From Candidatus Methanoperedens sp. (GTDB lineage: Archaea; Halobacteriota; Methanosarcinia; Methanosarcinales; Methanoperedenaceae): a DNA stretch of 64,000 nucleotides. Of this stretch, positions 669-18,830 are shown in pieces (within the stretch, counting starts at the first letter, position 1; the number at the start of each line of letters is the position of its first letter). A program made the translations under genes and the position numbers. Location of the stretch: assembly GCA_026552975.1 (NCBI GenBank), contig JAPMTR010000066.1:1-64000 (forward strand), written 5' to 3'. The notes under the pieces were generated by a model. That model saw nothing but the letters and a program-made list of their open reading frames with translations. It was not told the DNA's origin and searched no databases.

Positions 669-3600
669 TCAACTTATATTATTCCATAAAGCTATATTCT
701 TCGCATCCATCCAATACCCTCTACCTGGTTCCAGTTCACTGAAACCCTCAGATCCAGTAGCAGGCCACCAGCCCCAATCCAGGAAGTGGTCAGATTTCTC
801 AAAGAGCGCAGATGTGGTATTGTATCTGTAAATCGAGGTCAGGCTGTTAGCTGGTGTGACGTTAAGCGGATTACCTACCACAGATTCTTCACCCAGCTGC
901 GCTTCATTCATGGAATACCATCCGATCAGGTTCCAGCCTGATTTAATTGGAATATCCAGACCAGACGGCGCAGCGCCGGTGAATGTCAGGTTGCAATCCT
1001 GCTGAGCCATAATCCAGTATCCTCTACCTGGTTCTAATGCCGTGAAGCTCTCTGAACCTGTGGCTGGCCACCAGCCCCAATCTTCAAAATGGTCTGATTT
1101 TTCAAACAGCTCTGATGTAGTATTGTAGCGATAGATGGATAAAATACAGTTTGCTGGAGTGACGTATATCGGTTTTCCAACGTTTGATTCATCACCAAGT
1201 TTCCATGTTGTTAGATCAATAGGAACTGAAATAAGGTTCCATCCGGACTTGAGAGAAATTGTAGAAGACAATAATTCTGACAAAGGTGCTGTCCTTGCAG
1301 TTTTGTTCACCCATGTTTGATTTACATTCCCGGATGTATCAGCAGTATGCGTTCCGATTTCGTATTCTGTATCCGGCATTAATCCTGTGATGTTGTAGTA
1401 GTTCTGGGGCGCGGGGACGTTCGTGAGGAAGGCGCCGTTGAGGTAGAGGATGGTGTGGTTGAAGTCGGGGTCGGGGGGGTTGAGCCAAGTGAAGTTGATC
1501 CAAGTGGGGCCGGGGGTGGGGTGGAGGTTAGATATGGATGAGGGGGGCGTGCCTTCGATCAAGGTAAAGTAAGCCATTGCATATCCTTGCAGATTGTCAA
1601 TATCTCCGAATGTCACCTGGAGGGAGTATGGTTCACCAATTATTAACTCAGGATAATCATTGGTGTTGAAATCAACAGAGTATTGTTCATCTATGGAGTT
1701 GATTCCTACACTGTTAGTACCTGTGCCATTGGTGAAATAAGTAATTACTTGCCCTGTGGAATTTATGATTGTAACATTAACAGTTGAGTCATAAATAAAT
1801 TCATCAGTACTGCGATTTCTGGTTGTGAATTTTATTGGGAGGATGCTGCCATCTGTGAGATTAAACGATTCCTTGGTTGAGATGGGTGGCAAGAAGGTGA
1901 TGTTGTATCCATCCTCAGTGTAAGTATCAAAAATTGGTGAAATGTACTCATCAATTATTCCATCATTGTTGTTGTCTAATGATAAAATATAGGAATTCGT
2001 TCTGCCAATGTACATTTTTCCTCTTGTTAAGGAAGTAATCGGAATATCATTGAAAGTCAAGATAATATCTTTACTGGAAAAACTTAAATCTGCATCTCCA
2101 TTACCAGTTCCGATCATTTCAATGGTATACATTAAATCTGATGGTAAATTGTAAATCTCAAACTCTTCTCCTGAATTTAGACTTGCATTTGGTATTTCAT
2201 TTGTATCACCATTAAAAGTTGTAATGACTCTACCATGTTGATCAACTATTCTTAAATCTGCAGGACAAGCCAAGGTAATAATATAAGATTTAATATCACC
2301 AAGCTTCCCTTTCAATTGATTAGAAAAGAATTTAAGCATTTGTTTAAATACATTAATTTCAAATTTTTTTTCTGGATTGAAAGATAGAAATTTATCGAAA
2401 CGAATTTTTTGTTCATTCCAATAAGGATTATCGATATATTCAATATAATTTTGAGTCACTTCAATTTCACGTGTTTGATATGGTAGACTATTATCATAAA
2501 TATATATTATATCCGAATTACTTCCTGTCGAATAGCCTATAGGTGTGACAGCATGTTGTGCATTGCCACGTAGATGCATCCATAAAGGTTTATTTTCATC
2601 TATTGAATTTTTTATTTTTTGAAATTCTTGTTGTCCATGTCCATTCCAATTACGATCAAATATTCCAAAGAATAGAATATCTACTGCTGACTTAGTGCTC
2701 AACTGTGTTGCCTGATAATAATCTATATTATATCTTGCATCATTTTTTAGGATTTCAATAGTTTTACCTTCTTCATATCCAATGGGTTTGTCTATTTCAT
2801 TTTCAAAATATAATATACTTGTAGTTGTCATTCCAAAACAATGTCCCCCAAACTGGGTTATAGAACTGACTAATACCTTAAAGGTATTATATATTGGAAG
2901 TTCGATTGGATTCAATGAACTAAACATAGAATCCCAAAACATAATTGATAAATCTTCTCCTTCTATTGGATAATTCGGAAATTGATACCCATCTATACTT
3001 GGGCTGGCAATAAATTTGAAATTATATTCATCACTTTCAAATTTATCTCCAAATTCATTGAAAGAAGATAATCTATAATAATAAGTCTGCTGATAATCAA
3101 TATTTACTATTTCTATTTCATGTTTAGTGTCGAATGATGGATTTGATTTGCCATTTTCATAAGATAATGGTGATTTACCATAATTTACCGTACTATTGCT
3201 TGATATATCAGTTTCCCACTTTATAATCACTGAATTATCGTTAGTCATATTTAATCTGGGCCCACTGATAATTTTTGGAGTTGAAGGTAACTCGATTATA
3301 AAATGTCCATCGCTTATATCATTATAATAGCTATTAGTAGTACTCATGACCGTTACTTGATATTCAGTTCCTGGAACTAAATCTAAAGGAATTTTCCAGT
3401 TATAAGTCCCAACTCCATCACTGCCTATCGAAGTACTTGATACGATATCTATAGTACTGCCTTCACTGTTGAGAAGTTCAATTTTCACATTCGATCCAAG
3501 ATCTCCTGCATAAACCCATTTTATCGGATAAGTATTGCTAATATACCATGCTTCTCCCCCATTCGGTGAAGTGACAGTTATACCAGGTTCAGGCATACCA

Positions 3601-6600
3601 CTATAAATAATTGAATATTTCCCATCAAATCCTGCATCATAGCGATCAACAATCAATATCCTCCCATTCCTCATCCAGTAATTATACGAAGGTATCTCAG
3701 TCCCATCCCTCGTCCTTATCACTTTCTCAATAGGCACAGCATTATTATACGGATCTAAAATAGAAACGATCACCCAATCCCCTGTATAATCCTCTATGCT
3801 CAAATCCAGAACAGGATTATCAGGTTCTGGCATATTGACAACTGTATAACTGGCATTAATCACGAATGTTGAGCTTCCAGTAGAAGAATTGAACAACATA
3901 TAATGAGTCTCATTATCCTGCGAATTCGCCAGGAAATCATAACCCAATTCTCCTGAACCCATCTGCTTCTGGATAATGTATGTGTTTATCTTCTTGATCA
4001 ACGAAGTTTCCATTCCTCCAAGCTCACTTGAATGTGTATATTCACCGGTGAACTTAGTGAATGTCCCATCAATGCTTGTGACCATATCCCACCAGGCGAT
4101 CTTACTATCACCAGGCTGGATATCTCCAAAGTCCACTTTCATTGAACTACTTCTCTCTTCTCCCTGCAACTGGCTTCTGATGATCTCAAAGTCAAGCAGA
4201 AGACCTGAAGGATTATAATAGATAACAGGCTGTGCTGTTTCTATGGCAAAATTCCTGGCTTCTCCATGTCCTTCATTTGTGACCTTCACCGCAAGTTTGA
4301 ACGGCTTATTTGCGATCACATCAGATGGTATGAAGTAATCGAGCACGATCTCAGGCTGAGGTTTGACAAGAATTTCAATTTCCTGTGTTGATATCTCGAA
4401 ATTTACTCCATCTACGCTGTAACTGATATTGGCAGAGATGTTATATTTCACACCTTCAGGATCCACACCGCCTGCCCCAGTTTTGGGAATTATGAGCCAC
4501 TGGGATCTTGCAAGGGCTAATGGAGATATTACTCCTGATCCATCTATGCTGCTTATGCCATTCAATCTTGGCGCCTGTATGAAGAATTTATCGTTGGCCG
4601 ATCCGCTATTATCTTTTATGTGCAGGTCAACTCTCACATTATTGATGTTCTTATCAGGCAGCCTGTTCCTAATTCCAAGACCTGCCCAGAATGCATCACG
4701 CTCCATGGTCACGTTCTGGGATATTGAAAGTTCGACCACTTCATGTATTGTTTGAGTTACTCTGGGTTTTGGCTTTGGACGGATCGGATCGCCACCGCCA
4801 GGATGCCAGTTCCATTCAGGCCAGTCCCATGGAACAAAAGTTATTCCACTGAAATGGGGTAGTGTTGGTACTATGAATATATCTGGAACACAATTCCAGC
4901 AGAATGAGTCACTGCCCCATCCACCGGAAGATCCTCCTCCGCCACTTCCTGCAACAAGATGCACTTGAGGAATATATATCGTAAAATGCGGCAAACCACC
5001 TATTGTTGGAACGGAGTAATCGAATCCTGCCATTGGAAGGATCCAGAAACAATTATAACAGGAAGAGTTTCCAAATTGGAAAAGAAGGCCGCCAAGCATT
5101 AATTCAGGTAAAGTAACACCGACACCAGTTGGCAGTCTTTTGATATCAAGACTGGAATTCTGTTCTGGAACTATTAGATTTGTATCAAAATCCCCTAACC
5201 AGATACCATTAAAATAAGGAATATTAAATTTTTTCTCTAATACTTTCCCAACTACATCAAATCCCACCGGCATTCCTGTAAGTGATTCTATTATATCACC
5301 AATTCCAAATGAGAAAGTTATCCCAATTGCCTCGCTTAATTTGATATCGCCGATCTCATTGTTATTGGTTGCATCACTAACATCAGGGAGTGTCAATTCA
5401 TTTGTTCCAACAACCTCACCCCATTCTCCTGTCAATATCCATATAGTACTTGGATCAACATCCAGGTTTTCTTTTTGAGTCCCAAATTTTAAACCATCAA
5501 AATTGATACAATAATCTGGAAAGGGAATATTTAATTCTAGCTTGCAGGTTTCATCAACAGGTGTTCTTACCATAACAGGTATGCTCGTTCCAATATAGCT
5601 GATAACCTCATGGTTATTTATGAAATGAACATATCTTCCCTGGATATTGATCTTTCCAGATAATTCCTGGCAATTTGCTGCGCCTGGATCTATCTTTATT
5701 CGATAGGGGATCTGAACATTGCTTTTTCCTCTTATTTCATCCACGGTTGTTACTAATGGATCCAAAGTGATACCATTGTAATTTATTGGAGAAATTGTAA
5801 CATTATACGCGGATACCAATCCAACATTATATAATGCAAAAGAACCCATTTTTTCTTGCCCTGCAGCCATGTTATATTGAATATAGGGAGGATTAGCAAG
5901 AAGAAGCGGTATTGGAACATCTGTTTCAAACCTCATCTTCAGGATAACATTATAATAATCCTGAATTGATGTTGGCGTAACTTCCCAGTCAAAATCAATG
6001 AAACTCATATAAAGCGCTATTTCTATCAATTTTGGAGTATCCATCGGTTCTACTTCAATAGTTCCCATTTGTGGAAGTGTGTTTGTGCCGTCAGATGACA
6101 CCTCAAAAATATATCTGCCAGTCGGCAGGTCGGCCATCAAAGCGTATCCTGTAGAATTCGTGGATGATGCGAATTCATCATAGGTATCCTGATTGATCAG
6201 GGAGATATTGGTGTTTGAAAGATTTCTTTCAAGAGCATCTGTTACATGGAATAAAAGACTTCCATTTGTAAGTTCATTTACAAATGCTGTCACATTTACC
6301 TGGACTTCGTGATGGTTATCGCTTGTGATATTTATTTGATCCCTGTAAATTCCGGTATCTACATTGTATGAATTAATATGAATATCAAATGTTGCGTTCT
6401 CACCAGGCGGCAGGTCGCCAATACTTGTATTTGATGTAATGCTCGTCCAGTTGTTGTCAGGCTGATGCAATGTGACATTTCGAAGTACGCCATAGCCCAT
6501 GTTGTATATTGCAACTGTTTCGATCTGTGTTTGATTCTTATTTAGCCCTGTTATTATTTCTGAGGGATAGACTTTTAAGATCGGGTCAGGTTTAAATAAT

Positions 6601-8546
6601 TTGACATTCAGTTCGCTTATTTCATTCGAGTTCTGGTCAGATGTTATTTCAATATTGAATTTTGCAGCATCTGGAACTGGTGTTTCAGCATTTATTTGAA
6701 TTCTTATCGTAGCGCTTTGATAGGGTTGCAGTTCTGATGGCACAGTATCTATGGTAGCTGTCACCTTATCTGAAATATCAAGATCATTAAGTGTGGATGA
6801 TATACCTGTTATTGCCGTATCACCAAGATTGTAAAGAGTAAAATTAATAGTCCGTGTAGAATCCTCAACCATTTCTATTGTTGCAGATTGAGGGATAAGA
6901 TAGAGTCCATGGATCGTGAAGTTGCGCTCAGCGAACCTTAGAAGTCCCAGATTTGATGCTTCCGCTCTGATAGAATAATTTCCGGCTTCGGTATCAAATG
7001 GATTGAAGGAATAATTGAAATGTCCCGTTTCATTCGTGGTTACTGAATATGATCTCTTAAATCCATGAAGATCTATTTTCAAATTGACACTGATATTTTC
7101 TAAAGGACTGTTATTCAGGTATTTCACAATTCCAGAAATGTTAACGGCTTCGTCTCGATCGTAAAACGCTTTTTCAGTTTCCAATTCAATGACAAAATCG
7201 TCAGTAACTCCAATTAATAGTTCGGCAGTCTCAGAATTTCCTGATGTATCATTCCCTTTGAACACTATATTAAATAAACCTGGACCAATTGATCCAGTGT
7301 CTATGCTTCCATAAAAGATATTTGAAGTATCATTGAACTCCATTTCAATGGATCCAATTACAGGAGTTGAAGTATTGAATAGATAAACTGAAAAATTAAG
7401 ACTCAAGTTCTGATCAGTAAGGATCTGTGGAGAACTTCCCGGTTTTGCAACTCTAGCAGTAAAATTAGCGATATCGCCGATAAGATATGAATGTGAACGC
7501 GAATAAGGTTGAATTATATAAGCGCCTGTAAACAACAACCTTACCGAAGCCTTTCCTGAAGCAGTAGAATTATATGCTGTGATATTTGCCGCCCATATTC
7601 CAGAAGGATCATCCTCGCTTACCAGATATTCTCCGGAAAAATTCCCAGCATCTTCTGAAAGTAAGACCTGTCTTGAGGCGCCGTTCGGACCTGAGAGATC
7701 GGCAATTGATAAGATATCAGAGGTCACAGGATTACCTGCAAGATCTGTAACATTGATCTGGATTGTCAATTTCTCCCCGGCAGGAATTATCGAATAATTT
7801 TGAGGTTTAAGGATATTGATCTTCAAACCATCGGGTGAATATCCATAAGTTACAGCCGTATTGTTCACCCAGGTCTGATTTATATTACCTTTTATATCAG
7901 CGGTATGTGTGCTGATGGTGTGAATGGTTGCAGGCAGCAAACCAGTTGCGTTAAAATGATTTTCAGGAGAATCTGCAACAAATGTAGCATCAAAATAGAT
8001 TTTTGTATGATTGAAATCCGCGTCTATAGGATTTGTCCATGTCCAGTTTATCCATGTATCCCCCACAGTTGACCGTAAATCTGTAATTGAAGAAGGAGGT
8101 GCATCAGGCGACAAAAGAACTTCAACGCTTCCATTTTTTATTGTCGGAGTAATAAGCTGTCCCGACTCATTATTCAGGATCGCATAGGTAAGATTCACAC
8201 CTGTAAAACCTGTTATGGATCCATTGAAGACAATATTTGCCAGCACTGATTCATTCTTATTAACATTATAAACCCGCGCAACAACAAATTTGACCCATCC
8301 ATGAGTATTATTTATATTAGCCACAGGATCACCGAAATCTCCCGCGACTATATTTTTTACAGAAACGATGGACGGATCAAATGAGATATTGACCACTCCC
8401 CCGGCTACGTTTCCTGATCCGTTGATCATCACGGGAACAGTAACTTCAGAACCCACGGCTGTATAAGAATCCCCAATGCTCACTAATTCAGCCGATGCTG
8501 ATGAAATTGTAAGTAAAATGAAAAAAAGGACAAACAGATATTTCAT
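669..8546 (-). CDS. C3: giant secreted cohesin protein with candidate cysteine-protease domain
   Basis: This 2625 aa secreted protein begins with a signal peptide (1-19, cleavage at SSASA). A cohesin-like beta-sandwich follows at about 20-146 (VPVMINGSGNVAGGVVNISF, then ...VLANIVF). Next come an FN3-like module (150-235), many Asn/Thr-rich Ig-like modules, a Gly/Trp-rich stretch near 1200, a Kre9/KNH-like module (about 1655-1750) and another FN3 module. Around 1880-2060 lies a candidate papain-like cysteine protease with C1903 in GGHCFGM, H1998 in AQHAVT and D2018 in IYDNS. The C-terminus has an FN3 module (2336-2383 encoded by strikingly C-ending codons) and two SGWNL modules ending in GRGYW. 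No C-terminal membrane anchor is visible. The start lies 1 nt after the dockerin gene's stop with GGAG upstream, so translation is probably coupled. Function is inferred: a surface scaffold that may bind the neighbouring dockerin protein. Protease activity is unproven. Confidence 0.8.
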   Translation of the reverse strand: MKYLFVLFFILLTISSASAELVSIGDSYTAVGSEVTVPVMINGSGNVAGGVVNISFDPSIVSVKNIVAGDFGDPVANINNTHGWVKFVVARVYNVNKNESVLANIVFNGSITGFTGVNLTYAILNNESGQLITPTIKNGSVEVLLSPDAPPSSITDLRSTVGDTWINWTWTNPIDADFNHTKIYFDATFVADSPENHFNATGLLPATIHTISTHTADIKGNINQTWVNNTAVTYGYSPDGLKINILKPQNYSIIPAGEKLTIQINVTDLAGNPVTSDILSIADLSGPNGASRQVLLSEDAGNFSGEYLVSEDDPSGIWAANITAYNSTASGKASVRLLFTGAYIIQPYSRSHSYLIGDIANFTARVAKPGSSPQILTDQNLSLNFSVYLFNTSTPVIGSIEMEFNDTSNIFYGSIDTGSIGPGLFNIVFKGNDTSGNSETAELLIGVTDDFVIELETEKAFYDRDEAVNISGIVKYLNNSPLENISVNLKIDLHGFKRSYSVTTNETGHFNYSFNPFDTEAGNYSIRAEASNLGLLRFAERNFTIHGLYLIPQSATIEMVEDSTRTINFTLYNLGDTAITGISSTLNDLDISDKVTATIDTVPSELQPYQSATIRIQINAETPVPDAAKFNIEITSDQNSNEISELNVKLFKPDPILKVYPSEIITGLNKNQTQIETVAIYNMGYGVLRNVTLHQPDNNWTSITSNTSIGDLPPGENATFDIHINSYNVDTGIYRDQINITSDNHHEVQVNVTAFVNELTNGSLLFHVTDALERNLSNTNISLINQDTYDEFASSTNSTGYALMADLPTGRYIFEVSSDGTNTLPQMGTIEVEPMDTPKLIEIALYMSFIDFDWEVTPTSIQDYYNVILKMRFETDVPIPLLLANPPYIQYNMAAGQEKMGSFALYNVGLVSAYNVTISPINYNGITLDPLVTTVDEIRGKSNVQIPYRIKIDPGAANCQELSGKINIQGRYVHFINNHEVISYIGTSIPVMVRTPVDETCKLELNIPFPDYCINFDGLKFGTQKENLDVDPSTIWILTGEWGEVVGTNELTLPDVSDATNNNEIGDIKLSEAIGITFSFGIGDIIESLTGMPVGFDVVGKVLEKKFNIPYFNGIWLGDFDTNLIVPEQNSSLDIKRLPTGVGVTLPELMLGGLLFQFGNSSCYNCFWILPMAGFDYSVPTIGGLPHFTIYIPQVHLVAGSGGGGSSGGWGSDSFCWNCVPDIFIVPTLPHFSGITFVPWDWPEWNWHPGGGDPIRPKPKPRVTQTIHEVVELSISQNVTMERDAFWAGLGIRNRLPDKNINNVRVDLHIKDNSGSANDKFFIQAPRLNGISSIDGSGVISPLALARSQWLIIPKTGAGGVDPEGVKYNISANISYSVDGVNFEISTQEIEILVKPQPEIVLDYFIPSDVIANKPFKLAVKVTNEGHGEARNFAIETAQPVIYYNPSGLLLDFEIIRSQLQGEERSSSMKVDFGDIQPGDSKIAWWDMVTSIDGTFTKFTGEYTHSSELGGMETSLIKKINTYIIQKQMGSGELGYDFLANSQDNETHYMLFNSSTGSSTFVINASYTVVNMPEPDNPVLDLSIEDYTGDWVIVSILDPYNNAVPIEKVIRTRDGTEIPSYNYWMRNGRILIVDRYDAGFDGKYSIIYSGMPEPGITVTSPNGGEAWYISNTYPIKWVYAGDLGSNVKIELLNSEGSTIDIVSSTSIGSDGVGTYNWKIPLDLVPGTEYQVTVMSTTNSYYNDISDGHFIIELPSTPKIISGPRLNMTNDNSVIIKWETDISSNSTVNYGKSPLSYENGKSNPSFDTKHEIEIVNIDYQQTYYYRLSSFNEFGDKFESDEYNFKFIASPSIDGYQFPNYPIEGEDLSIMFWDSMFSSLNPIELPIYNTFKVLVSSITQFGGHCFGMTTTSILYFENEIDKPIGYEEGKTIEILKNDARYNIDYYQATQLSTKSAVDILFFGIFDRNWNGHGQQEFQKIKNSIDENKPLWMHLRGNAQHAVTPIGYSTGSNSDIIYIYDNSLPYQTREIEVTQNYIEYIDNPYWNEQKIRFDKFLSFNPEKKFEINVFKQMLKFFSNQLKGKLGDIKSYIITLACPADLRIVDQHGRVITTFNGDTNEIPNASLNSGEEFEIYNLPSDLMYTIEMIGTGNGDADLSFSSKDIILTFNDIPITSLTRGKMYIGRTNSYILSLDNNNDGIIDEYISPIFDTYTEDGYNITFLPPISTKESFNLTDGSILPIKFTTRNRSTDEFIYDSTVNVTIINSTGQVITYFTNGTGTNSVGINSIDEQYSVDFNTNDYPELIIGEPYSLQVTFGDIDNLQGYAMAYFTLIEGTPPSSISNLHPTPGPTWINFTWLNPPDPDFNHTILYLNGAFLTNVPAPQNYYNITGLMPDTEYEIGTHTADTSGNVNQTWVNKTARTAPLSELLSSTISLKSGWNLISVPIDLTTWKLGDESNVGKPIYVTPANCILSIYRYNTTSELFEKSDHFEDWGWWPATGSESFTALEPGRGYWIMAQQDCNLTFTGAAPSGLDIPIKSGWNLIGWYSMNEAQLGEESVVGNPLNVTPANSLTSIYRYNTTSALFEKSDHFLDWGWWPATGSEGFSELEPGRGYWMDAKNIALWNNIS
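694..1560. repeat. Long direct repeat, copy 1 (3' end of C3)
   Basis: This segment encodes the last roughly 290 residues of C3: FN3 module, linker and two SGWNL/GRGYW modules. It matches the corresponding end of C2 (about 10829-11690) at DNA level, with long near-identical runs such as the stretch at 1021-1080 against 11161-11220. The two copies lie about 10 kb apart in the same orientation, so they could recombine. Confidence 0.8.
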
Positions 8547-8547
8547 T

Positions 8548-9375
8548 TCACTCCAATCCCACGATCTTCCTCATCAGGATGGTAACATCTCCGCTATCCA
8601 GCACGCCATTCCCGTTGAAATCACCGAACAAACCGCCATAGTAATAATACACTTTGATGGATTTTTCAGCGCTGTATGTCGTATTCGTGGTAACGTTCAC
8701 CTTTATCGTATTGATACCAAAATTCAAAGGAACTGATGCATTCCAGGAAGTTGTGCCAGTTGCATGAACACCGTTCACCGTCACATCCACGATCTCGTTT
8801 GGCGAAAAGGCTGTGCCATTCACATTGACCGGTGAACTCAGGACAATATCACCATGCTGCGGGTTTGATATGTTGATATCGAGTTCTCGCTTTTCTACGT
8901 TTGTTGGATTATCCAGAGGTTGGTAGGAGATAACGTCGGCATATTTTACTATCATGACACCGGGTTCACCGACAAGATGGTTTACTTCAGTGGCATTTTC
9001 CAGAGGTTGATAGGAAATAACATCGGCGTATTTCACTACCATGACACCGGGTTCACCGACAAGGTGGTTTACTTGAGTGGCATTTTCCAGAGGTTGATAG
9101 GAAATAACATCGGCGTATTTCACTACCATGACACCGGGTTCACCTACAAGATGGTTTACTTCAGTGGCATTTTCCAGTGGCTGATAGGAGATGACATCGG
9201 CGTATTTTACTACCATGACGTCGGGTTCACCGATAAGATGGTTTACTTCAGTGGCGTTTTCCAATGTCATATTCCAAACATAACTGGCGTCAGTAACATT
9301 TATTTCAGCAGCTAAAGCTATTTGATAATATCCTGATAATAAAATAACAATGGCTATCAGAATCTTATTCTGCAT
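8548..9375 (-). CDS. B3: secreted repeat protein with C-terminal dockerin-like loop
   Basis: This 275 aa protein has a signal peptide (MQNKILIAIVILLSG..., cleavage near ALAA). Four 29-residue repeats of the type PLENATEVNHLVGEPGVMVV follow, then one Ig-like module (about 165-235, INISNPQHGDIVLSSPVNV). It ends in a calcium-loop half-dockerin, GDFNGNGVLDSGDVTILMRK. The open frame reaches upstream to 9417, but the ATG at 9375 directly opens a signal peptide and overlaps the stop of A3 by 11 nt, so I chose it. C3 begins 1 nt after its stop. Dockerins bind cohesins through Asp/Asn calcium loops, and the cohesin gene next door is the obvious partner (inference). Only one F-hand is clear, whereas classical dockerins have two. 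The repeat domain is not one I recognise. Confidence 0.8.
   Translation of the reverse strand: MQNKILIAIVILLSGYYQIALAAEINVTDASYVWNMTLENATEVNHLIGEPDVMVVKYADVISYQPLENATEVNHLVGEPGVMVVKYADVISYQPLENATQVNHLVGEPGVMVVKYADVISYQPLENATEVNHLVGEPGVMIVKYADVISYQPLDNPTNVEKRELDINISNPQHGDIVLSSPVNVNGTAFSPNEIVDVTVNGVHATGTTSWNASVPLNFGINTIKVNVTTNTTYSAEKSIKVYYYYGGLFGDFNGNGVLDSGDVTILMRKIVGLE
8917..9264 (-). repeat. Four in-frame 87-nt tandem repeats in B3
   Basis: The marker atgacaccggg (variant atgacgtcggg in the last copy) recurs at 8954, 9041, 9128 and 9215, an exact 87-nt period encoding 29 residues. The copies are nearly identical in DNA, which points to recent expansion or gene conversion. Confidence 0.9.
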
Positions 9376-10120
9376 ACTCCAACACCAGACCAATGCGACC
9401 TGTGCCGCTATATGCATCTATTTTAACTTCATGTTCAATCCCGTTTGCGAATAGTCCTAACATAGAACCATATGAAATTGTATCCTGTCCCAAATTACTG
9501 AAAGGAGTAGCACTTCCATCAAGATAAGCCCTACTATAACCATAACACGCATATCCACAACCTCCCGTGGCTGAAAAATGCGACCAATCCACAGCAAACA
9601 TCGAAAAGGTCGTAGGTATCGTCACTTTGAAAGAATTAGTCCCAGTTGTGGACTCAAATATAATCATCATCTTTGAAGCATCTGGGTATCTAAAATCATA
9701 ATATTTTAGACCAGTACTTGTTCCCCCAACTACTGTTGCTACATTACTCACTGCTTTACTCAATGTTGTCGATGTGATTGGTCCACCTGTATAATCCTGC
9801 CATGGCATTATCCAGCCAGAAGACCTTGCTTTCGGATAGTATGCAACGATCCAGCCATCTTTGCTTACATACACATGGGGATATTCTTCTTCTAAATAAC
9901 GCCACATTTCAACAGTCCCTATAATATAATCAGGTGTTTCCCTTTCGATCGATGCAAACGCAGATTTAGTTAAATTTAGATCAATACTCGCCTTCGCCTT
10001 CACATAAGCGGATATCCCCGCCTCATCTGCCGGGAAGTCAACTGCTGCACTGGCGCTTCCTGCAAGCAAGAAGATGCAAAGAAGCGCGAACGATATGATC
10101 ACGGTATTTTTTTTATTCAT
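9365..10120 (-). CDS. A3: secreted protein of unknown family, third module
   Basis: This 251 aa protein has a signal peptide cleaved near GSASA-AV. It is a paralogue of the genes at 16194-17018 and 17761-18633. Shared features are an E-x-G-(I/L)-(S/A)-AYV start of the mature chain, DYIIGTVE, PHVY-x-S-x-DGW-x-x-AYYPK followed by IMPW, and KYYDFRYPDA, ending in a hydrophobic strand (GLVLEYAE). The sequence suggests a soluble, mostly beta exported protein. I do not recognise the family and no catalytic motif is obvious. A GGAG ribosome-binding site overlaps the stop of the small S3 gene 11 nt upstream. The dockerin gene B3 starts inside its last codons. It is the most diverged of the three A paralogues. 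Confidence 0.8.
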   Translation of the reverse strand: MNKKNTVIISFALLCIFLLAGSASAAVDFPADEAGISAYVKAKASIDLNLTKSAFASIERETPDYIIGTVEMWRYLEEEYPHVYVSKDGWIVAYYPKARSSGWIMPWQDYTGGPITSTTLSKAVSNVATVVGGTSTGLKYYDFRYPDASKMMIIFESTTGTNSFKVTIPTTFSMFAVDWSHFSATGGCGYACYGYSRAYLDGSATPFSNLGQDTISYGSMLGLFANGIEHEVKIDAYSGTGRIGLVLEYAE

Positions 10121-10131
10121 GGTATTTTCTC

Positions 10132-10359
10132 CTAATCTATAAATGGTGGTTTTTCAAGCGGGATTGAAATAGGGCCTGTCCGGGTATTGTTTGTGGTATT
10201 GGAAGCTGGAACCTGGCCTGGGGTTGTATTAGTAATGCTGTCATTCAGAGAAGTTTTAGTATCATTTTTCTGGGCAGGTTGTGCTCCAGGAAAGACAGAC
10301 AGAGCAAACACAATTATTGCCAGAATGAGAATAAGAATGATTTTAAGATTTATTTTAAT
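10132..10359 (-). CDS. S3: small secreted peptide with apparent AUU start
   Basis: This 75-residue frame begins IKINLKIILILILAIIVFAL, a signal or anchor segment, continues with an Asn/Thr/Pro-rich linker and ends ISIPLEKPPFID. The same ending occurs in S1 (ISIPLKNP...) at the equivalent place upstream of A1, and a variant (VSILLEKSQFI) in S2. No ATG, GTG or TTG lies between the in-frame TAG at 10363-10365 and the hydrophobic core. An ATT codon sits 7 nt after a perfect GGAGGG, so AUU is the likely start. Its stop is followed 11 nt later by A3, whose ribosome-binding site overlaps the stop. Function is unknown. Conservation of position and C-terminus argues that it is translated. A decayed gene is the main alternative. 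Confidence 0.55.
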   Translation of the reverse strand: MKINLKIILILILAIIVFALSVFPGAQPAQKNDTKTSLNDSITNTTPGQVPASNTTNNTRTGPISIPLEKPPFID

Positions 10360-10366
10360 AAGCTAT

Positions 10367-10372
10367 CCCTCC
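10367..10372 (-). promoter_or_regulatory. Shine-Dalgarno GGAGGG of S3
   Basis: On the minus strand GGAGGG is followed by ATAGCTT and then ATT. Spacing is ideal for the ATT codon at 10359, and an in-frame TAG lies between them, which excludes a start further upstream. Confidence 0.55.
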
Positions 10373-13800: not shown

Positions 13801-15480
13801 ATAATCATAAGGTATTCTATAAAAAGTAGGATTTCCATTACTTGATTTTACCATGGCATCAATCCTCGTAATCAGTCCATCACTAACAGCTATTCCAGAT
13901 AATCGAATTTTTTGATCAGCAGTATGGAAATTTGTTTGAGGAATCTCGATTTTAATCGTCGGTCCCCTAGTTACATCTTTTGGATAAGTCACAAAATTGA
14001 TGCCATCTAATGTTGTGATATATCCACCCTCGCAATTAACTTGAAGATATCCGAAATTATTTACGTAATCATTCGAAACCGGGAATCCAAGCCAACCGCC
14101 GCTGCCACCTTCAGCATAATATTTATCTGCAATCTTTTTGCCTTCAGGCTGGTTCAATCCTATGACAAATATTTCATTCGTTTCTCGAATCCAGTGAATA
14201 ATCCCGCCTTCAAAGACACTATATCTTCCTGTCAATCCTGAAGGAGATTTCGCCGCTTCTCTCTCATCCGTTGTGGGCAATCCCAGGTTTGAAGCAGCAT
14301 AACCTAATTCTCTCCATTTCTGTAAGATCCCGCCGTGTACTTCAAAGACTTTCCCTGATGTAATGTTTAACTCCAGATTACCGCCTTCGAATTTCTGGTA
14401 TCTGAATGGAGTCCCATATTTTGATTTTTCAGGAGGGAGCTGATGAACATAAGGCTCAATATCGCTTGTTGGCGGTCCTAACCAAAAATTAAGGTTTGTT
14501 TTTGCATTTGCCCCGCCCATACTGTAATACCGCTCCCAGATTTCACTGTGAATATAATATGCATACTTTTGATACGTGTTGTAAATGATTATCCCGCCGC
14601 CATAGCCTGATGCTCCAGGGAAATCCTGCACAAGATAGCCCCATGCTCGGTGAACTACTGTGGCAGGACTGCCCAGGACAATTATTCCACCATTACGATT
14701 GTAAGCGGCAATGAAATGATTCTGGGTTGCTAAATCTGGGGCGTCTTGACCTACCGATATGGTAAGATCACCAGCAGTCAGCGCTGTATTATTCACCCAG
14801 GCCTGATTTATCATACCATTTATATCAGCAGTATGTGTACCGATGGTGTGAATTGTTGCAGGTTGCAGACCCGTTGCATTAAAATGATTTTCAGTGAATT
14901 CTGCAACAATTGCACCATCCAAATAGATTATTGTATGATTGAAATCAGCATCAACCGGATTTGTCCATGTCCAGTTGATCCAAGTATCCCCCACTGTTGA
15001 TCGCAAATCTGTAATTGAAGATAGAGGTGTTTCATCCAGTGATAAAACAACTTCAATGGTTCCGTTCTTAATTGTCGGAGTAAAAATCTCTCCCGACGCA
15101 TTATTCAGGATGGCATAGGTAAAATTCACACCTGTTAAACCTATTGTGGATCCATTAAATACCAAATTCGCCAGTACAGCCTGGCTTTTATTGACTTTAT
15201 CAATCCGCGCAGCTACCAGCTTTACCCAGCCATTTGTATTATTTATGTTAGCAAATGGTGAACCAAAATCACCTGCAGTCACTATTTCCAAATGAATTAT
15301 AGATGGATTAAAAGATACATTGACCACTCCCCCTGCGATCAATTCAGCATCATTTATGTTGATCGGAACAGCAAATTCTGAATCCAAAGCTATCTGATGA
15401 TCCCCAATACTTACAGTCTGTGCGCAAGCTAATGGAGTTAAAAATATGAAAAGTAAGAAAAGTGAGAAAATTGTCTTCAT
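10819..15480 (-). CDS. C2: giant secreted cohesin protein with phosphoesterase domain
   Basis: This 1553 aa secreted protein has a signal peptide (1-20), a cohesin-like domain (about 21-146) and an FN3-like module (150-232), all close in sequence to the start of C3. Next come LGFP-like repeats (about 245-470; SNLGLPTTDER, GGWLGFPVSNDY) and a beta module. A calcineurin-type metallophosphoesterase spans about 605-870, with D610 and H612 (TDVHIGD), GDLVDYS, GNHDRR, MHNP and H840/H842 (SGHTHE); the metal-ligand motifs look complete. PKD- and Ig-like modules, an FN3 module and two SGWNL/GRGYW modules close the protein. Translation starts in an ATGA overlap with the dockerin gene. The likely role is a cell-surface or secreted enzyme scaffold; the substrate is unknown. 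Confidence 0.85.
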   Translation of the reverse strand: MKTIFSLFLLFIFLTPLACAQTVSIGDHQIALDSEFAVPININDAELIAGGVVNVSFNPSIIHLEIVTAGDFGSPFANINNTNGWVKLVAARIDKVNKSQAVLANLVFNGSTIGLTGVNFTYAILNNASGEIFTPTIKNGTIEVVLSLDETPLSSITDLRSTVGDTWINWTWTNPVDADFNHTIIYLDGAIVAEFTENHFNATGLQPATIHTIGTHTADINGMINQAWVNNTALTAGDLTISVGQDAPDLATQNHFIAAYNRNGGIIVLGSPATVVHRAWGYLVQDFPGASGYGGGIIIYNTYQKYAYYIHSEIWERYYSMGGANAKTNLNFWLGPPTSDIEPYVHQLPPEKSKYGTPFRYQKFEGGNLELNITSGKVFEVHGGILQKWRELGYAASNLGLPTTDEREAAKSPSGLTGRYSVFEGGIIHWIRETNEIFVIGLNQPEGKKIADKYYAEGGSGGWLGFPVSNDYVNNFGYLQVNCEGGYITTLDGINFVTYPKDVTRGPTIKIEIPQTNFHTADQKIRLSGIAVSDGLITRIDAMVKSSNGNPTFYRIPYDYKTTKWETNVGLQYGLNIINVSVADGNFHGSRDTIYVYYDEPDFSFVHMTDVHIGDITLPLSNIKKSRITNVLDQINKEIPKPDFVLISGDLVDYSNEDFFNQFNDIFTSVKAYIVPGNHDRRLWPAIGGNDNLVNYRKNIDKSQNLHYINDIYNFEERGYQFIGLDSGSDYDYLYPSLDTYYMNDFSPEGTGLTDTQLSGLMEFDKTTPKIIFMHNPAIDNSDDKKPIQCYLYPLTPEICKPALIPNINYGGNDETIANNREEFIDYTIEYNVQLVLSGHTHENYIFNSHGTKLDVLSEDRPLFIQTGSAMGNEYKDESDGLSFSNRPPLYGYRIIDLRDGKVYPRQFRPMEPLLAPNTDLMPLFESTDRSKLTLELRCPANLHVYDSQGRHTGLNSSGGIETNIPESFYIGRYNASDPDEPETIFIYNATEEYSFEIIANLTEEQKNSPENESFNFTMDRQSEGIRTIESFQNITLNENTIATLHVNITTENPKMSLDYNGDTITDETKYPNSIETNYAPTAAIITPEIGSIYNESEIIEFNGTGRDPEDGILTNTSLVWYSDIDGFIGSGERFGTVNLSAGSHIITLMVNDSMYLYGASSMTITIADTAPPVTTLIPSGTLGNNSWFISEVNVTLTATDTQTGSGVNITEYSFDNATWTTYLTHFNITSEGITTVYFRSTDNIGNVESINNQTIKIDKTLPYSIVNPQTIIGSTWLNLTWLNPPDPDFNHTILYLNGTHITDIPAPQNYYNFTGLEQDTLYELGTHTVDSSGNVNQTWVNKTARTAPLSGLLSSTISLKSGWNLISVPFDLTTWKLGDESDVGKPINVTPTNCISSLYQYNTTSALFEKSDHFTDWGWWPATGSESFTALEPGRGYWIMAQQDCSLTFTGTAPSDLDIPLDTGWNLVGWYSMNVAPLDEEAEAGNPLNVTPANSLTSIYRYNTTSALFEKSDHFPDWGWWPATGSEGFTEIEPGRGYWVMAQNGAEWRHRS
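10829..11690. repeat. Long direct repeat, copy 2 (3' end of C2)
   Basis: This is the counterpart of 694-1560. It encodes the FN3 plus double SGWNL C-terminus of C2, with the same unusual C-ending codon patch (about 11575-11660). Upstream of this module the two proteins differ completely until their N-terminal cohesin and FN3 domains. Confidence 0.8.
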
Positions 15481-16181
15481 GTTATCATTCCTACAACCTT
15501 CTGCATAAGTATTGTTACATCGCCGCTATCCAGAATACCGTTTCCGTTCAGGTCACCCAGCATTCGTCCAATGCCAAACGGATTTACCCAGAATCCCGAC
15601 GGCGTATTATTTTCCTGGTCCAATGCATCTATTACACCATCCCCATCTGTGTCAATATAGATTGAGTTGTTAGATGGAGGTGAAAGGAAAAAAGATGCCA
15701 TCTGCGAATACCATGAAGAATCAAAATGTTCAATAAAGATCCTCGGTCGAACAGCATTTAAAGAATTATTAAGATCCGCTGCAACAACTATTAAATTTCG
15801 TCCAGGTAGGGAATCCACATCTTCAGTGAATATCCTCGGTCGAACCGTATTTAAAGAATTATTAAGGTCAGATGGAGCAACATTTAAATTTCGTCCAGGT
15901 AGGGAATCCACATCTTCAGTGAATATCCTCAGTCGAATAGTATTTAAAGAATTATTAAGGTCAGATGGAGCAACATTTAAATTTCGTCCAGGTAGAGAAT
16001 CAACATTCTCTGTGAATATCCTGGAACGAATACTATCTAGTGGGCTACTAAGCTCCACTGGTGCAGTGTTCAGGGTTAAATTTCTTACTGAAGCATTCTC
16101 CACATATATCTCTGCTGAAGCGCCTCCTATAAAAGCAGGCAGCAGTAATATGATTAATAGCACCGAATATTTGATTCCCAT
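15477..16181 (-). CDS. B2: secreted repeat protein with dockerin-like C-terminus
   Basis: This 234 aa protein has a signal peptide (MGIKYSVLLIILLLPAFIGG, cleavage at ASA-EI). Four 31-residue repeats follow (LNNSLNTVRPRIFTEDVDS-PGRNL type). The C-terminus has two calcium-type loops: DTDGDGVIDALD near 180 and the terminal LGDLNGNGILDSGDVTILMQ. The pair resembles a loosely spaced dockerin. The gene begins 12 nt after A2 with an AGGT ribosome-binding site, and its TGA overlaps the ATG of the cohesin protein C2. Asp/Asn loop positions are intact, so calcium-dependent cohesin binding is plausible (inference). It is closely related to B1 and more distantly to B3. Confidence 0.8.
   Translation of the reverse strand: MGIKYSVLLIILLLPAFIGGASAEIYVENASVRNLTLNTAPVELSSPLDSIRSRIFTENVDSLPGRNLNVAPSDLNNSLNTIRLRIFTEDVDSLPGRNLNVAPSDLNNSLNTVRPRIFTEDVDSLPGRNLIVVAADLNNSLNAVRPRIFIEHFDSSWYSQMASFFLSPPSNNSIYIDTDGDGVIDALDQENNTPSGFWVNPFGIGRMLGDLNGNGILDSGDVTILMQKVVGMIT
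15715..16065 (-). repeat. Four in-frame 93-nt tandem repeats in B2
   Basis: Equivalent positions recur at 15731, 15824, 15917 and 16010, an exact 93-nt period (31 residues). The middle copies are nearly identical in DNA and the outer ones more diverged, as expected for expansion from inside the array. Confidence 0.85.
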
Positions 16182-16193
16182 CTCAAGACCTGC

Positions 16194-17018
16194 TTACGGT
16201 TGTTTGTATATCAGGACGATTGCGATGTTTGAGGAACCTTCATCGGTAGTCCAAGCAGTGTACCCAATGTCGCCCTTATGCAATACATCTTTTGTTAGAG
16301 CGCTTATTGTTCCAAAATATCTTTCATCCACCAGGTTACCGCCATCTGATAAACTGGTATGACTAATTACACCATTTGTCCCAGAAAGGTAATTGCCATC
16401 CAAAACAAAGTAGCTTGGACCATTATAATTATAACTATCGTATGAATAATACGCCCACGAAGCATCGTACAGCAAATATTCGTTCGGCACCCTGAACCTG
16501 AAGCTATCTACTCCATTGGTAGCCCTGCTCTCAGCTATCAGTGTCAATCCATTAGCCTCTGGATACTGGAAATCATAATATTTCGTGTTTGGCTTGATGC
16601 TGGAATAAGCGACACCTACAATAGTTGATACTGCAGATAGCGCCTCTTCAAGTCGTGTATTACTCATTAAGCTCGTGTCAGGATTATTTTTGTCAAACTG
16701 CCCCCATGGCATTATCAGAGCTCTGGGCCTTTCTTTGGCATAGTATGCCATGACCCAACCATCTGAACTCGTATAAACATGCGGCTGTTCGTAATCATTT
16801 GCATTTGGAACTTCTACAATTCCAATTATATAAGTGCTTGTTCTATCCTCGATTATCTTATATGCGGTTGCTGCCTGATCGAGACTTATGTTTTTGCCCA
16901 CATTTACATAGGCAGATAATCCTACTTCATTTGTTGCAAAGGCTGCTGATGCATTTGCTGCTAAAAATGACACTACACACACAAGCGTGATTAATGCTGC
17001 GAATATTTTTGTTTTCAT
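16194..17018 (-). CDS. A2: secreted protein of unknown family, second module
   Basis: This 274 aa protein has a signal peptide cleaved near NASA-AF. It is strongly similar to A1 along its length: TSTYIIGIVEVPNANDYEQP, DGWVMAYYAKERPRALIMPW, IKPNTKYYDFQYPEA, FRFRVPNEYLLYD and a final SSNIAIVLIYK strand. Export and beta-rich character are visible; no catalytic motif or membrane anchor is. The gene is preceded by GGAG 8 nt upstream of the ATG and the truncated S2 frame, and followed 12 nt later by B2. The recurrent linkage to dockerin and cohesin genes suggests it works with them outside the cell, perhaps as the effector or ligand of the assembly (inference). Confidence 0.8.
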   Translation of the reverse strand: MKTKIFAALITLVCVVSFLAANASAAFATNEVGLSAYVNVGKNISLDQAATAYKIIEDRTSTYIIGIVEVPNANDYEQPHVYTSSDGWVMAYYAKERPRALIMPWGQFDKNNPDTSLMSNTRLEEALSAVSTIVGVAYSSIKPNTKYYDFQYPEANGLTLIAESRATNGVDSFRFRVPNEYLLYDASWAYYSYDSYNYNGPSYFVLDGNYLSGTNGVISHTSLSDGGNLVDERYFGTISALTKDVLHKGDIGYTAWTTDEGSSNIAIVLIYKQP

Positions 17019-17035: not shown

Positions 17036-17140
17036 TTAAATAAACTGTGATTTTTCAAGTAAAATCGAAACTATTTTATTGAGAGCAGAAGCGTTTTGGC
17101 TGTTGTTCGGTGCCGATACGTCGATTCCGGTAGTTCTCAT
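17036..17140 (-). CDS. S2: truncated S peptide opened by a cohesin-type ATGA start
   Basis: This 34-residue frame starts at the ATG that overlaps the B1 stop (ATGA), exactly where a cohesin gene starts after B2. It reads MRTTGIDVSAPNNSQNASA and continues to VSILLEKSQFI, matching the linker and conserved tail of S1 and S3 but lacking the hydrophobic N-terminus. I read it as a junction left when the module-1 cohesin gene and the first part of S2 were deleted. It may still be translated by coupling but has no export signal. The region also carries the A2 ribosome-binding site. Confidence 0.5.
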   Translation of the reverse strand: MRTTGIDVSAPNNSQNASALNKIVSILLEKSQFI

Positions 17141-17748
17141 GTCATCATTCCTACAATCTTCTGCATGAGTATTGTTACATCGCCGCTATCCAGAATGCCA
17201 TTTCCGTTCAGATCGCCCAGCATTCTTCCTATACCCAGCGGATTTACCCAGAATCCCGGTGTAGTGTTATTTTCCCTATCCCATTTATCGATCACACCAT
17301 CTCCATCCATGTCACCATCGATTGAGTTGTTGGGTGGAGGCAAGGGGAAATAAGGCGCCATCAGTGAGTGCAATAGCCCATCAGCATCATCAGTGAATAT
17401 CCTTGATTGAACAGTATTTATTGAACTATCAAGTCCAGATGGAACAGACATTAAATTTGGCGCAAATGCATCATCAGCATCATCAGTGAATATCCTTATT
17501 CGAACAGTATTTATGGAACTATTAAGTCCGGATGGAACAGACATTAAATTTGGTGAAAATGCATCATCAGCATCATCAGTGAATATTCTGGAACGAACAT
17601 CATGAATGGAACTATTGAGTTCCACTGATGCAATATTCAGACTGAAATTTATGACCGAAGCATTCTCAACATAAATATCTGCTGAAGCTCCGCTCATTAA
17701 AGCGGGCAAAAGAAATACGATCAACATCATAGAAATTTTGATTCCCAT
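17137..17748 (-). CDS. B1: secreted repeat protein with dockerin-like C-terminus
   Basis: This 203 aa protein has a signal peptide (MGIKISMMLIVFLLPALMSG, cleavage at ASA-DI). Three 31-residue repeats follow (LNSSINTVRIRIFTDDADDA type). Two calcium-type loops follow: DMDGDGVIDKWD and the C-terminal LGDLNGNGILDSGDVTILMQ. It is nearly superimposable on B2, with one repeat fewer. It starts 12 nt after A1, with the same AAGCAGGT leader as B2. Its stop overlaps an ATG as in B2/C2, but that ATG opens only the 34-residue S2 frame, so this dockerin has no cohesin gene of its own. It could pair with the cohesin of C2 or C3 (inference). Confidence 0.8.
   Translation of the reverse strand: MGIKISMMLIVFLLPALMSGASADIYVENASVINFSLNIASVELNSSIHDVRSRIFTDDADDAFSPNLMSVPSGLNSSINTVRIRIFTDDADDAFAPNLMSVPSGLDSSINTVQSRIFTDDADGLLHSLMAPYFPLPPPNNSIDGDMDGDGVIDKWDRENNTTPGFWVNPLGIGRMLGDLNGNGILDSGDVTILMQKIVGMMT
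17375..17640 (-). repeat. Three in-frame 93-nt tandem repeats in B1
   Basis: The marker cagtgaatat recurs at 17391, 17484 and 17577, a 93-nt period equal to that of B2 but with different unit sequence, so B1 and B2 arrays expanded after they diverged. Confidence 0.85.
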
Positions 17749-17760
17749 TGCAAAACCTGC

Positions 17761-18633
17761 TTATGGTGCTTTGTAAATCACTGCAATTGCTATGTTCGAA
17801 GAACCTGCATCGATATAAGGACCATAAGCACAACCATTAGGATTATTATAATATTGATAATACCAAAGATCCCCCTTATGAAGGACATCTTTTGTTAAAC
17901 CATTTATTGTACCATAGTACCGTTCATCAAGGCCGTTACCGCCATCAGATCTGCTGTTGTGATTAAACGATCCATTTGTTCCAATAAGTTCATTGCCATC
18001 CAGCTTGAACAAACTGTTTTGTCTGCTACAGCGACCATTTTGCTCACTACCATACGAATAATACTCCCACGAAGTATCGTATAATGTTATTTCAGTTGGT
18101 ACTCTGAACCTGAAACTTTGTACTCCATCGATAGCACTACTCCTTGCGATCATTGTCAACCTATTAGCATCTGGATACTGGAAATCATAATATTTCGTAT
18201 TTGGCTTGATGGTAGAGTATTCAATGCCATTTACCCCTGAAACCTTAGCGATTGCCTCCTCAAGTCTTGAATTACTCAATTGGCTAATATCCGGAGTATT
18301 TTTATCAAACTGCCCCCACGGCATGATCAAAGCTCTGGGCTTCTCTTTTGGGTAATAAGCCATGACCCATCCATCTGAAGTTGTGTACACATGCGGCATT
18401 TCATAATCGTTCGCATTTGGAACATCAACAATACCAATTATGTATGTGCTTGTTCTGTCCTCTATGCCCCTATATGTCCCGGCTGCCTGGTCTAAATCGA
18501 TGCTCATACCCACATTTACATAGGCTGCTATGCCTGCTTCACTGGATGCAAAGCCTTCTGCTGAAGAATTTCCTGTTAAAAATAAAACTGTACACATAAG
18601 CGATATTAACGGTATGAATATTTTTGTTTTCAT
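17761..18633 (-). CDS. A1: secreted protein of unknown family, first module
   Basis: This 290 aa protein has a signal peptide cleaved near NSSA-EG and is the longest of the three A paralogues. It shares STYIIGIVDVPNANDYEMP, DGWVMAYYPKEKPRALIMPW, IKPNTKYYDFQYPDA, FRFRVPTEITLYD and the SSNIAIAVIYK ending with A2. It has a few cysteines in insertions near the C-terminal half (QNGRCSRQ, NPNGCAYG) that could form a disulfide outside the cell. It follows S1 by 14 nt and precedes B1 by 12 nt in what looks like one operon running to the left. Family and function are not recognised. Confidence 0.8.
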   Translation of the reverse strand: MKTKIFIPLISLMCTVLFLTGNSSAEGFASSEAGIAAYVNVGMSIDLDQAAGTYRGIEDRTSTYIIGIVDVPNANDYEMPHVYTTSDGWVMAYYPKEKPRALIMPWGQFDKNTPDISQLSNSRLEEAIAKVSGVNGIEYSTIKPNTKYYDFQYPDANRLTMIARSSAIDGVQSFRFRVPTEITLYDTSWEYYSYGSEQNGRCSRQNSLFKLDGNELIGTNGSFNHNSRSDGGNGLDERYYGTINGLTKDVLHKGDLWYYQYYNNPNGCAYGPYIDAGSSNIAIAVIYKAP

Positions 18634-18647
18634 ATTTATTACTACTC

Positions 18648-18830
18648 CTATCTAATCATTAATATACGGGGATTTTTAAGTGGAATTGATATCATATTAT
18701 TATTGGTGTTAGTCATTTGATTTTGATTGGTATTCACTGCTGAAGCATCGCCATTCCTACTCTTGTTGGCGCTAAGTAATAGAACGAGAGCGAAAATTAT
18801 GATTACATTAATTAGTGATTTTTTTTCCAC
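18648..18830 (-). CDS. S1: small secreted or N-anchored peptide, GTG start
   Basis: This 60-residue peptide has an N-terminal hydrophobic segment (SLINVIIIFALVLLLSA), an Asn/Thr/Gln-rich linker and the tail ISIPLKNPRILMIR. The tail matches S3 (ISIPLEKPPFID) and S2. The start is GTG at 18830 with GGTGG a few bases upstream. It is the first gene of the three-module operon, 14 nt before A1. The function is unknown; the repeated linkage S-A suggests a role in export, anchoring or processing of A (inference). Confidence 0.6.
   Translation of the reverse strand: MEKKSLINVIIIFALVLLLSANKSRNGDASAVNTNQNQMTNTNNNMISIPLKNPRILMIR

What the first reader, a model, noticed from the sequence alone, without database searches (positions are those of the whole stretch)
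18648..18830. Family of tiny secreted peptides with a conserved C-terminal motif
S1, S2 and S3 share a low-complexity Asn/Thr linker and a (I/V)SI(P/L)L(E/K)(K/N) tail at the same place before each A gene. Conservation of the tail rather than the signal region hints at a recognition sequence for A or a sorting system.
Basis: inference. Interest (0 to 1): 0.55.

Follow-up and report, generated by a model that had tools for sequence, protein, structure and literature searches.

The report
Anchor peptide split from surface protein
Methane-oxidising archaea carry a tiny membrane-anchored protein whose conserved last dozen residues probably hook onto the surface protein encoded next to it, because in related archaea the same two pieces form one single protein.

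Summary
In the order searched, 17 of 19 places matching A have an S frame directly before A. Full-length S proteins have a lipobox or one membrane helix, an Asn/Thr/Asp/Ser-rich linker, and a near-invariant C-terminal tail, [VI]SIPLEKPPFI. The tail is conserved as protein (pN/pS 0.15). Exact matches to a tail pattern occur only beside A (15 places; 185 and 392 genomes).

The key finding: ANME-1 and related archaea mostly lack a separate S. Their A protein carries the anchor, the linker and the same motif ([VI]ISLVPPPFI) at its own N-terminus. S and A are therefore two halves of what elsewhere is one protein. AlphaFold2 models the tail as a confident beta-strand both in a fused protein and in a split pair modelled without fused rows. 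Best reading: S is a membrane anchor whose tail binds A non-covalently, probably as a donated strand.

In the window only S1 is intact. S3, the given feature, is shifted by one base after "IPL"; S2 lacks an anchor. "Secreted" and "sorting" are not supported; "recognised by A" is.

The parts
18648..18830 (-). S3 (the given feature): hydrophobic segment, Asn/Thr linker, tail start ISIPL, then out of register with the family
17761..18633 (-). A3, secreted surface protein of an unnamed family, 290 aa
17137..17748 (-). B gene after A3; repeats and a weak C-terminal dockerin-like EF hand
   Evidence: Dockerin_1 E 0.0032, below Pfam's cut-off
17036..17140 (-). S2, anchorless remnant with tail VSILLEKSQFI; ATG overlaps the stop of the B gene after A3
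16194..17018 (-). A2, 274 aa, 70% identical to A3
15477..16181 (-). B gene after A2; repeats and a weak dockerin-like end
   Evidence: Dockerin_1 E 0.0018, below cut-off
10132..10359 (-). S1, intact S: membrane segment, Asn/Thr linker, canonical tail ISIPLEKPPFID; probable ATT start after GGAGGG (start inferred)
10135..10170 (-). conserved tail of S1 (12 codons)
9365..10120 (-). A1, 251 aa, partner of S1
8548..9417 (-). B gene after A1; repeats, Glucodextran_B domain, weak dockerin-like end; overlaps the 3' end of A1
   Evidence: Glucodextran_B 1.6e-7; Dockerin_1 0.071
669..8546 (-). giant surface protein with N-terminal cohesin domain (context)
   Evidence: PF00963, E 4.5e-7

Best explanation
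S is a membrane anchor for A. Its N-terminus stays in the membrane as a lipoprotein or a single membrane helix, and a flexible linker reaches outward (43-60 residues from anchor to C-terminus). The last 11-12 residues bind the secreted A protein non-covalently, most likely as an extra beta-strand added to A's C-terminal beta-sandwich. In ANME-1 and some other archaea the same anchor, linker and strand are fused in cis to the N-terminus of A, so the split S plus A does in trans what the fused protein does in one chain. Shown: S next to A, protein-level constraint, fused homologues. Predicted: the tail is an ordered strand. Inferred: binding in trans, the surface of A used, and that A in turn displays the repeat/dockerin B proteins encoded after it.
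For: (1) S directly before A in 17 of 19 in-order places and in 11 of 33 named loci. (2) Tail pN/pS 0.147 (pS 0.66, 17 tails; shifted frames 3.2 and 2.4); tail identity 84% against 23% for the 30 residues before it. (3) A tail pattern matches 14 places in 13 of 185 genomes and 6 places in 5 of 392 (sets overlap; 15 distinct places), every one the S before A; reversed-pattern control 0. (4) Fused anchor-linker-motif-A in 18 of 24 loci outside the order and 16 of 33 named loci. A profile of S tails picks the motif in 14 of 15 fused proteins at shuffle p<0.05 (12 of 15 <0.01), in 0 of 5 A proteins with neither and 1 of 11 split A signal peptides. (5) AF2 of a fused protein: anchor and linker pLDDT <50, tail block 41-50 at 86 with a strand, residues 56-66 <50, domain mostly >90. 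(6) AF2 of a split S-A pair read through two stops, with no fused rows in the alignment: tail block 61-70 at 92 with a strand, linkers <50. Some structural alignments begin just before or in the tail strand and end in A's C-terminal sandwich, against single small beta-sandwich or cupin chains. (7) In G054, where A is gone but for its signal peptide, the S frame has lost its anchor part.
Against: No binding experiment and no complex prediction with interface scores; coordinates and PAE were not available, so the docking surface is inferred from ranges in structural alignments. AF2 was run twice, with no scrambled-tail control and no model of A alone. Only two paired rows supported the split model. 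Fused motifs share only the I-x-L-x-x-P-P-F-I frame and differ at the E-K positions; three of 15 score weakly. A proteins of Methanothrix (L082, L091) and of two bins labelled bacterial (L088, L090) have neither S nor motif, so A can do without it. In the window A2 has only an anchorless S2 and S3 is frameshifted, so two of three local pairs look decayed.
Confidence: 0.7

Rival explanations
1. The tail is a conserved partner-binding or folding motif, but for something other than A (for example a B protein, a membrane protein or a processing enzyme); S and A merely sit in one operon.
For: B genes follow A in split, fused and S-less loci alike, so a third partner is always at hand. AF2 cannot exclude a spurious dock.
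Against: In fused loci the motif is in A's own chain; AF2 gives it as an ordered strand in both arrangements while linkers and A's signal peptide stay low in confidence; the pattern is absent from the searched genomes without A.
Confidence: 0.15
2. S is a leader peptide (upstream ORF) that couples or regulates translation of A; conservation reflects the DNA/RNA before A's ribosome site.
For: S ends about 11-60 nt before A in most loci, and its stop can overlap A's ribosome site.
Against: Variation sits at third codon positions (entropy 0.31/0.12/1.17; pN/pS 0.147); L079 has about 165 nt between S and A; the motif recurs inside fused proteins, where no leader function is possible.
Confidence: 0.04
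3. The tail is released as a secreted signalling peptide (pheromone), with A as its receptor or carrier.
For: Small precursor with a signal-like N-terminus and conserved C-terminus; S2 would be a tail without anchor.
Against: Anchors are kept in function though not in type (lipobox or membrane helix), and fused A proteins keep the motif attached to both anchor and A.
Confidence: 0.05
4. The tail is a sorting or processing signal (archaeosortase/sortase type).
For: It is C-terminal and highly conserved.
Against: No membrane helix or basic cluster follows it; no sorting-signal family in NCBIfam or Pfam; in fused proteins it is N-terminal and internal.
Confidence: 0.03

Closest known systems
Exosporium leader / F-Anchor peptide docking on ExsF (Bacillus; PMC11952670, passages read)
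   Same: A short proline-containing conserved end peptide of a tethered protein docks non-covalently on a TNF/C1q-type surface protein; PDB 9H3D appears among weak fold matches to the A domain.
   Different: There the peptide is N-terminal and lies in a trimer cleft; no sequence relation found. Here the peptide is C-terminal and predicted to form a strand, and natural cis fusions exist.
Donor-strand complementation (chaperone-usher pili; recalled, no call)
   Same: A short peptide from another chain completes a beta-sandwich.
   Different: No relation found; S is a fixed anchor rather than a polymerising subunit; strand addition here is only predicted.
Archaeal and bacterial lipoproteins
   Same: Lipobox in part of the S family.
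   Different: S has no folded domain of its own, only linker and tail; others in the family use a membrane helix.
ANME cohesin/dockerin surface proteins (Chadwick et al. 2022, PMC9012536, section 32 read)
   Same: Some B genes next to A end in dockerin domains; the window has a cohesin-bearing giant protein.
   Different: S and A carry no dockerin or cohesin; section 32 does not describe an S-A pair.

Membership tests
Prokaryotic lipoproteins | lipobox [LVI][ASTVIMGL][GAS]C at the end of an N-terminal hydrophobic stretch | tested here: inconclusive
   8 of 19 S frames strict; two more (L089 MSGC, L007 TSAC) relaxed by eye; most of the rest have a plain membrane segment, and two (window S2, L032) have no anchor. 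Lipidation not tested.
Archaeosortase/sortase substrates | C-terminal signal: motif followed by membrane helix and basic cluster (definition recalled) | tested here: not met
   The tail is followed by only 1-3 residues; no such NCBIfam or Pfam hit
Exosporium leader peptides (TIGR03720) | N-terminal leader matching the NCBIfam model | tested here: not met
   Not among hits for six S and two A proteins; motif is C-terminal
Donor-strand complementation | acceptor fold lacks a strand that the partner peptide supplies | tested here: inconclusive
   AF2 gives the tail as a confident strand; ranges place it with A's C-terminal sandwich; no coordinates, no model of A alone
Translational leader peptides | function in cis on the mRNA rather than as a lasting protein | tested here: not met
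   Protein-level selection and cis-fused homologues
Dockerin proteins | dockerin domain above Pfam cut-off | tested here: not met
   None in A or S. Some neighbouring B proteins pass (L078, L061); the three window B proteins fall below the cut-off

The most novel reading that the evidence does not exclude
A surface protein has been split by evolution more than once into a secreted body and a membrane-anchored peptide that lends it the missing first strand of its beta-sandwich. This makes a reversible, exchangeable cell-surface display system in anaerobic methane-oxidising archaea, onto which repeat/dockerin proteins are hung.
Probability: 0.4. Interest if true: 0.75.

Novelty: new variant of a known kind. 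Interest (0 to 1): 0.6.

Why it matters
How ANME archaea attach proteins to their surface bears on how they hold syntrophic partners and extracellular assemblies. Here an unnamed, widely shared protein family comes with its own dedicated anchor peptide, short enough to be missed by gene callers, and with natural one-chain versions that tell which two pieces belong together. That makes a direct binding test easy, and it offers a short archaeal tag that might tether proteins to membranes.

Tried and rejected
Rejected: chance motif; nucleotide-level leader; sorting signal. No A relative was found in viral contigs or plasmids.

Led nowhere: Pfam/NCBIfam/PDB sequence searches for A. Foldseek and VIA-align on the two models gave only middling jelly-roll-type matches (best Z 8.6, 110 residues, rmsd 2.8, BcsB), which show a common arrangement, not kinship. 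Alignments A5 and A6 put S rows on A's signal peptide and were dropped. The PSSM background (628 ORFs) includes S and fused A themselves and is not used. The direction of change (fission or fusion) stays open: the 16 split rows are rejected as one clade (p-AU 0.001), and so are 14 without L089/L092 (p-AU 0.024); but the tree is unrooted with long branches.

Literature: searches listed no paper on an S-A pair; only section 32 and passages of PMC9012536 and passages of PMC11952670 were read.

Rows left out of counts: window S2 and S3; L032 also; loci not in the 40-row tree include L048, L053, L058, L059, L068, L093 and duplicates of named loci. In one search, places without a fetched locus were not examined.

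Full report
WHAT IS THERE. The window lies in a genome of the same genus as G024. G024's contig C54 (51,095 bases) has the length of the named record behind L070, Candidatus Methanoperedens nitroreducens, so the window is read as Ca. Methanoperedens. On the minus strand are three A genes (9365-10120, 16194-17018, 17761-18633), each with an S frame directly before it and a B gene after it.

CORRECTIONS TO THE READING. S1 is intact: hydrophobic segment, Asn/Thr-rich linker, tail ISIPLEKPPFID. It has no usual start codon; an ATT lies 7 nt after GGAGGG (start inferred). S2 is 34 residues with no anchor; its ATG overlaps the stop of the B gene before it. S3, the given feature, has lost register after 'ISIPL': aligned with S2 and the L070 S it lacks one base, and the next frame reads (E)KSPYIND-stop. 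Whether this is real or an assembly error cannot be told here.

S ELSEWHERE. A profile of A found 19 places in 15 of 185 genomes of the order. In 17 of 19 an S-type frame lies directly upstream. Of those 17, three are the window's own (two degenerate); G054 has S before an ORF sharing only A's signal peptide; G043's A frame breaks after 67 codons; G035's contig ends inside A. The two exceptions are a fused copy in G068 (L034) and a distant A in G058 (L015). Among 33 named loci of GTDB species genomes, 11 are split S+A: Methanoperedens, ANME-2 bins, GoM-Arc1 GB37 (twice), Argoarchaeum, one Methanophagales and one bin labelled bacterium. The named and unnamed sets overlap and are not independent.

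THE TAIL IS CONSERVED AS PROTEIN. Over 17 tails (window S2 and S3 left out) pS is 0.66 and pN 0.097, ratio 0.147; the same bases read one or two positions off give 3.2 and 2.4; entropy by codon position is 0.31, 0.12, 1.17. Tail identity is 84% pairwise against 23% for the 30 residues before it (16 S proteins, ungapped). The tail ends 1-3 residues before the stop. Strict lipoboxes occur in 8 of 19 S frames; most others have one hydrophobic segment. The part after that segment, tail included, is 43-60 residues long in the frames that have an anchor, apart from the shifted S3 (36).

THE TAIL IS TIED TO A. A degenerate 26-base pattern for I[PSTA]L[EQ][KR]PPF[IL] hits 14 places in 13 of 185 genomes of the order and 6 places in 5 of 392 genomes of the phylum; the sets share genomes, giving 15 distinct places. 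By position each is the S before an A found. The reversed pattern hits none.

FUSED HOMOLOGUES. In a second search, 27 of 392 phylum genomes have A. I examined the 24 loci fetched from outside the order. One is split (L037). In 18 A itself starts with a membrane helix, a Gly/Ser-rich linker and a motif such as GVISLVPPPFIGVAGA before the A domain; some of these are partial or frame-broken (L038, L052, L054, L055, L058), and L051 and L057 carry looser forms. Three lack it (L048, L056, L059) and two are unclear (L045, L053). Of the 33 named loci, 16 are fused, 4 have neither, one is cut by the contig end and one is a weak match. The clearest pair is L012's split tail VSISLEKPPFI and L071's fused VSISLVPPPFI. 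A profile of 12 distinct S tails scores the fused N-termini above shuffles in 14 of 15 at p<0.05 (12 of 15 <0.01), none of 5 A proteins with neither, and 1 of 11 split A signal peptides. Fused rows are related to each other, so these are not 15 independent tests.

TREE. On a 40-row tree of the A domain the split rows need three changes of state and are rejected as one clade (p-AU 0.001); 14 of them without L089/L092 are also rejected, more weakly (p-AU 0.024). The tree is unrooted and has long branches, so repeated fission is plausible but not shown. G374 (SB_Co_68) has a fused copy (L060) and a split copy (L037/L079) that groups with GB37 (100/99), which suggests transfer.

STRUCTURE. AF2 of fused L071 (33 rows): mean pLDDT 82.7; residues 1-39 and 56-66 below 50; block 41-50 at 86 with strand 42-47 (VVSISL); most blocks of the A domain above 90. 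AF2 of split S-A from L081, read through two stops, with no fused rows and only one other paired row: anchor helix 2-26; 27-54, 77-89 and 103-110 below 50; block 61-70 at 92 with strand 61-67 (NRTTIPL). So the tail is ordered in both, between low-confidence stretches that serve as internal controls. In one search, rows such as 9u8o_B, 1nqj_A and 6b8w_A align from model residue 56-60 (just before or in the tail strand) to 331-335 against small single-domain chains; that suggests that the tail strand lies with A's C-terminal beta-sandwich. This is inference from ranges; no coordinates were seen. Fold matches of A are middling (best Z 8.6) and name no family; sequence searches name none.

NEIGHBOURS. 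A signal-peptide protein follows A in split, fused and S-less loci; its C-terminal part varies: dockerin (L078, L061), PKD (L071), beta-helix (L070), C25 peptidase (L092). The window also has a giant protein with a cohesin domain. This fits display of extracellular modules, but no binding of A to B is shown.

VERDICT. S is most likely the split-off anchor of A. Adjacency, selection and fusion are shown; the ordered strand is predicted; binding in trans and strand donation are inferred. The closest known mechanism is docking of a terminal peptide on a jelly-roll protein, as in F-Anchor/ExsF (PMC11952670, passages read), without kinship.

Noticed in passing
window 8548-9417, 15477-16181, 17137-17748; L061-L092: B genes after A share short repeats with DAD/NAD-like motifs and a signal peptide but differ in C-terminal modules (dockerin, PKD, beta-helix, C25 peptidase); the start of B often overlaps the end of A.
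   Followed up: partly
window 669-8546 and 10819-15480: Giant surface proteins: one with an N-terminal cohesin domain, one with a calcineurin-like phosphoesterase and LGFP repeats.
   Followed up: partly
L032 (G054): S frame without its anchor part, before a different ORF that keeps only A's signal peptide: S seems to decay where A is lost.
   Followed up: partly
L030 (G043): A frame breaks shortly after the signal peptide while S stays intact.
   Followed up: no
L092 (Argoarchaeum Eth-Arch1): S and A are in one frame with a single TGA between them.
   Followed up: no
L072, L084, L087, L088, L090: A homologues in bins labelled as bacteria (Chloroflexi, Omnitrophota, Nealsonbacteria); mis-binning or transfer not resolved.
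   Followed up: no
window 10359-10372: S1 appears to start with ATT behind a strong GGAGGG ribosome site.
   Followed up: no
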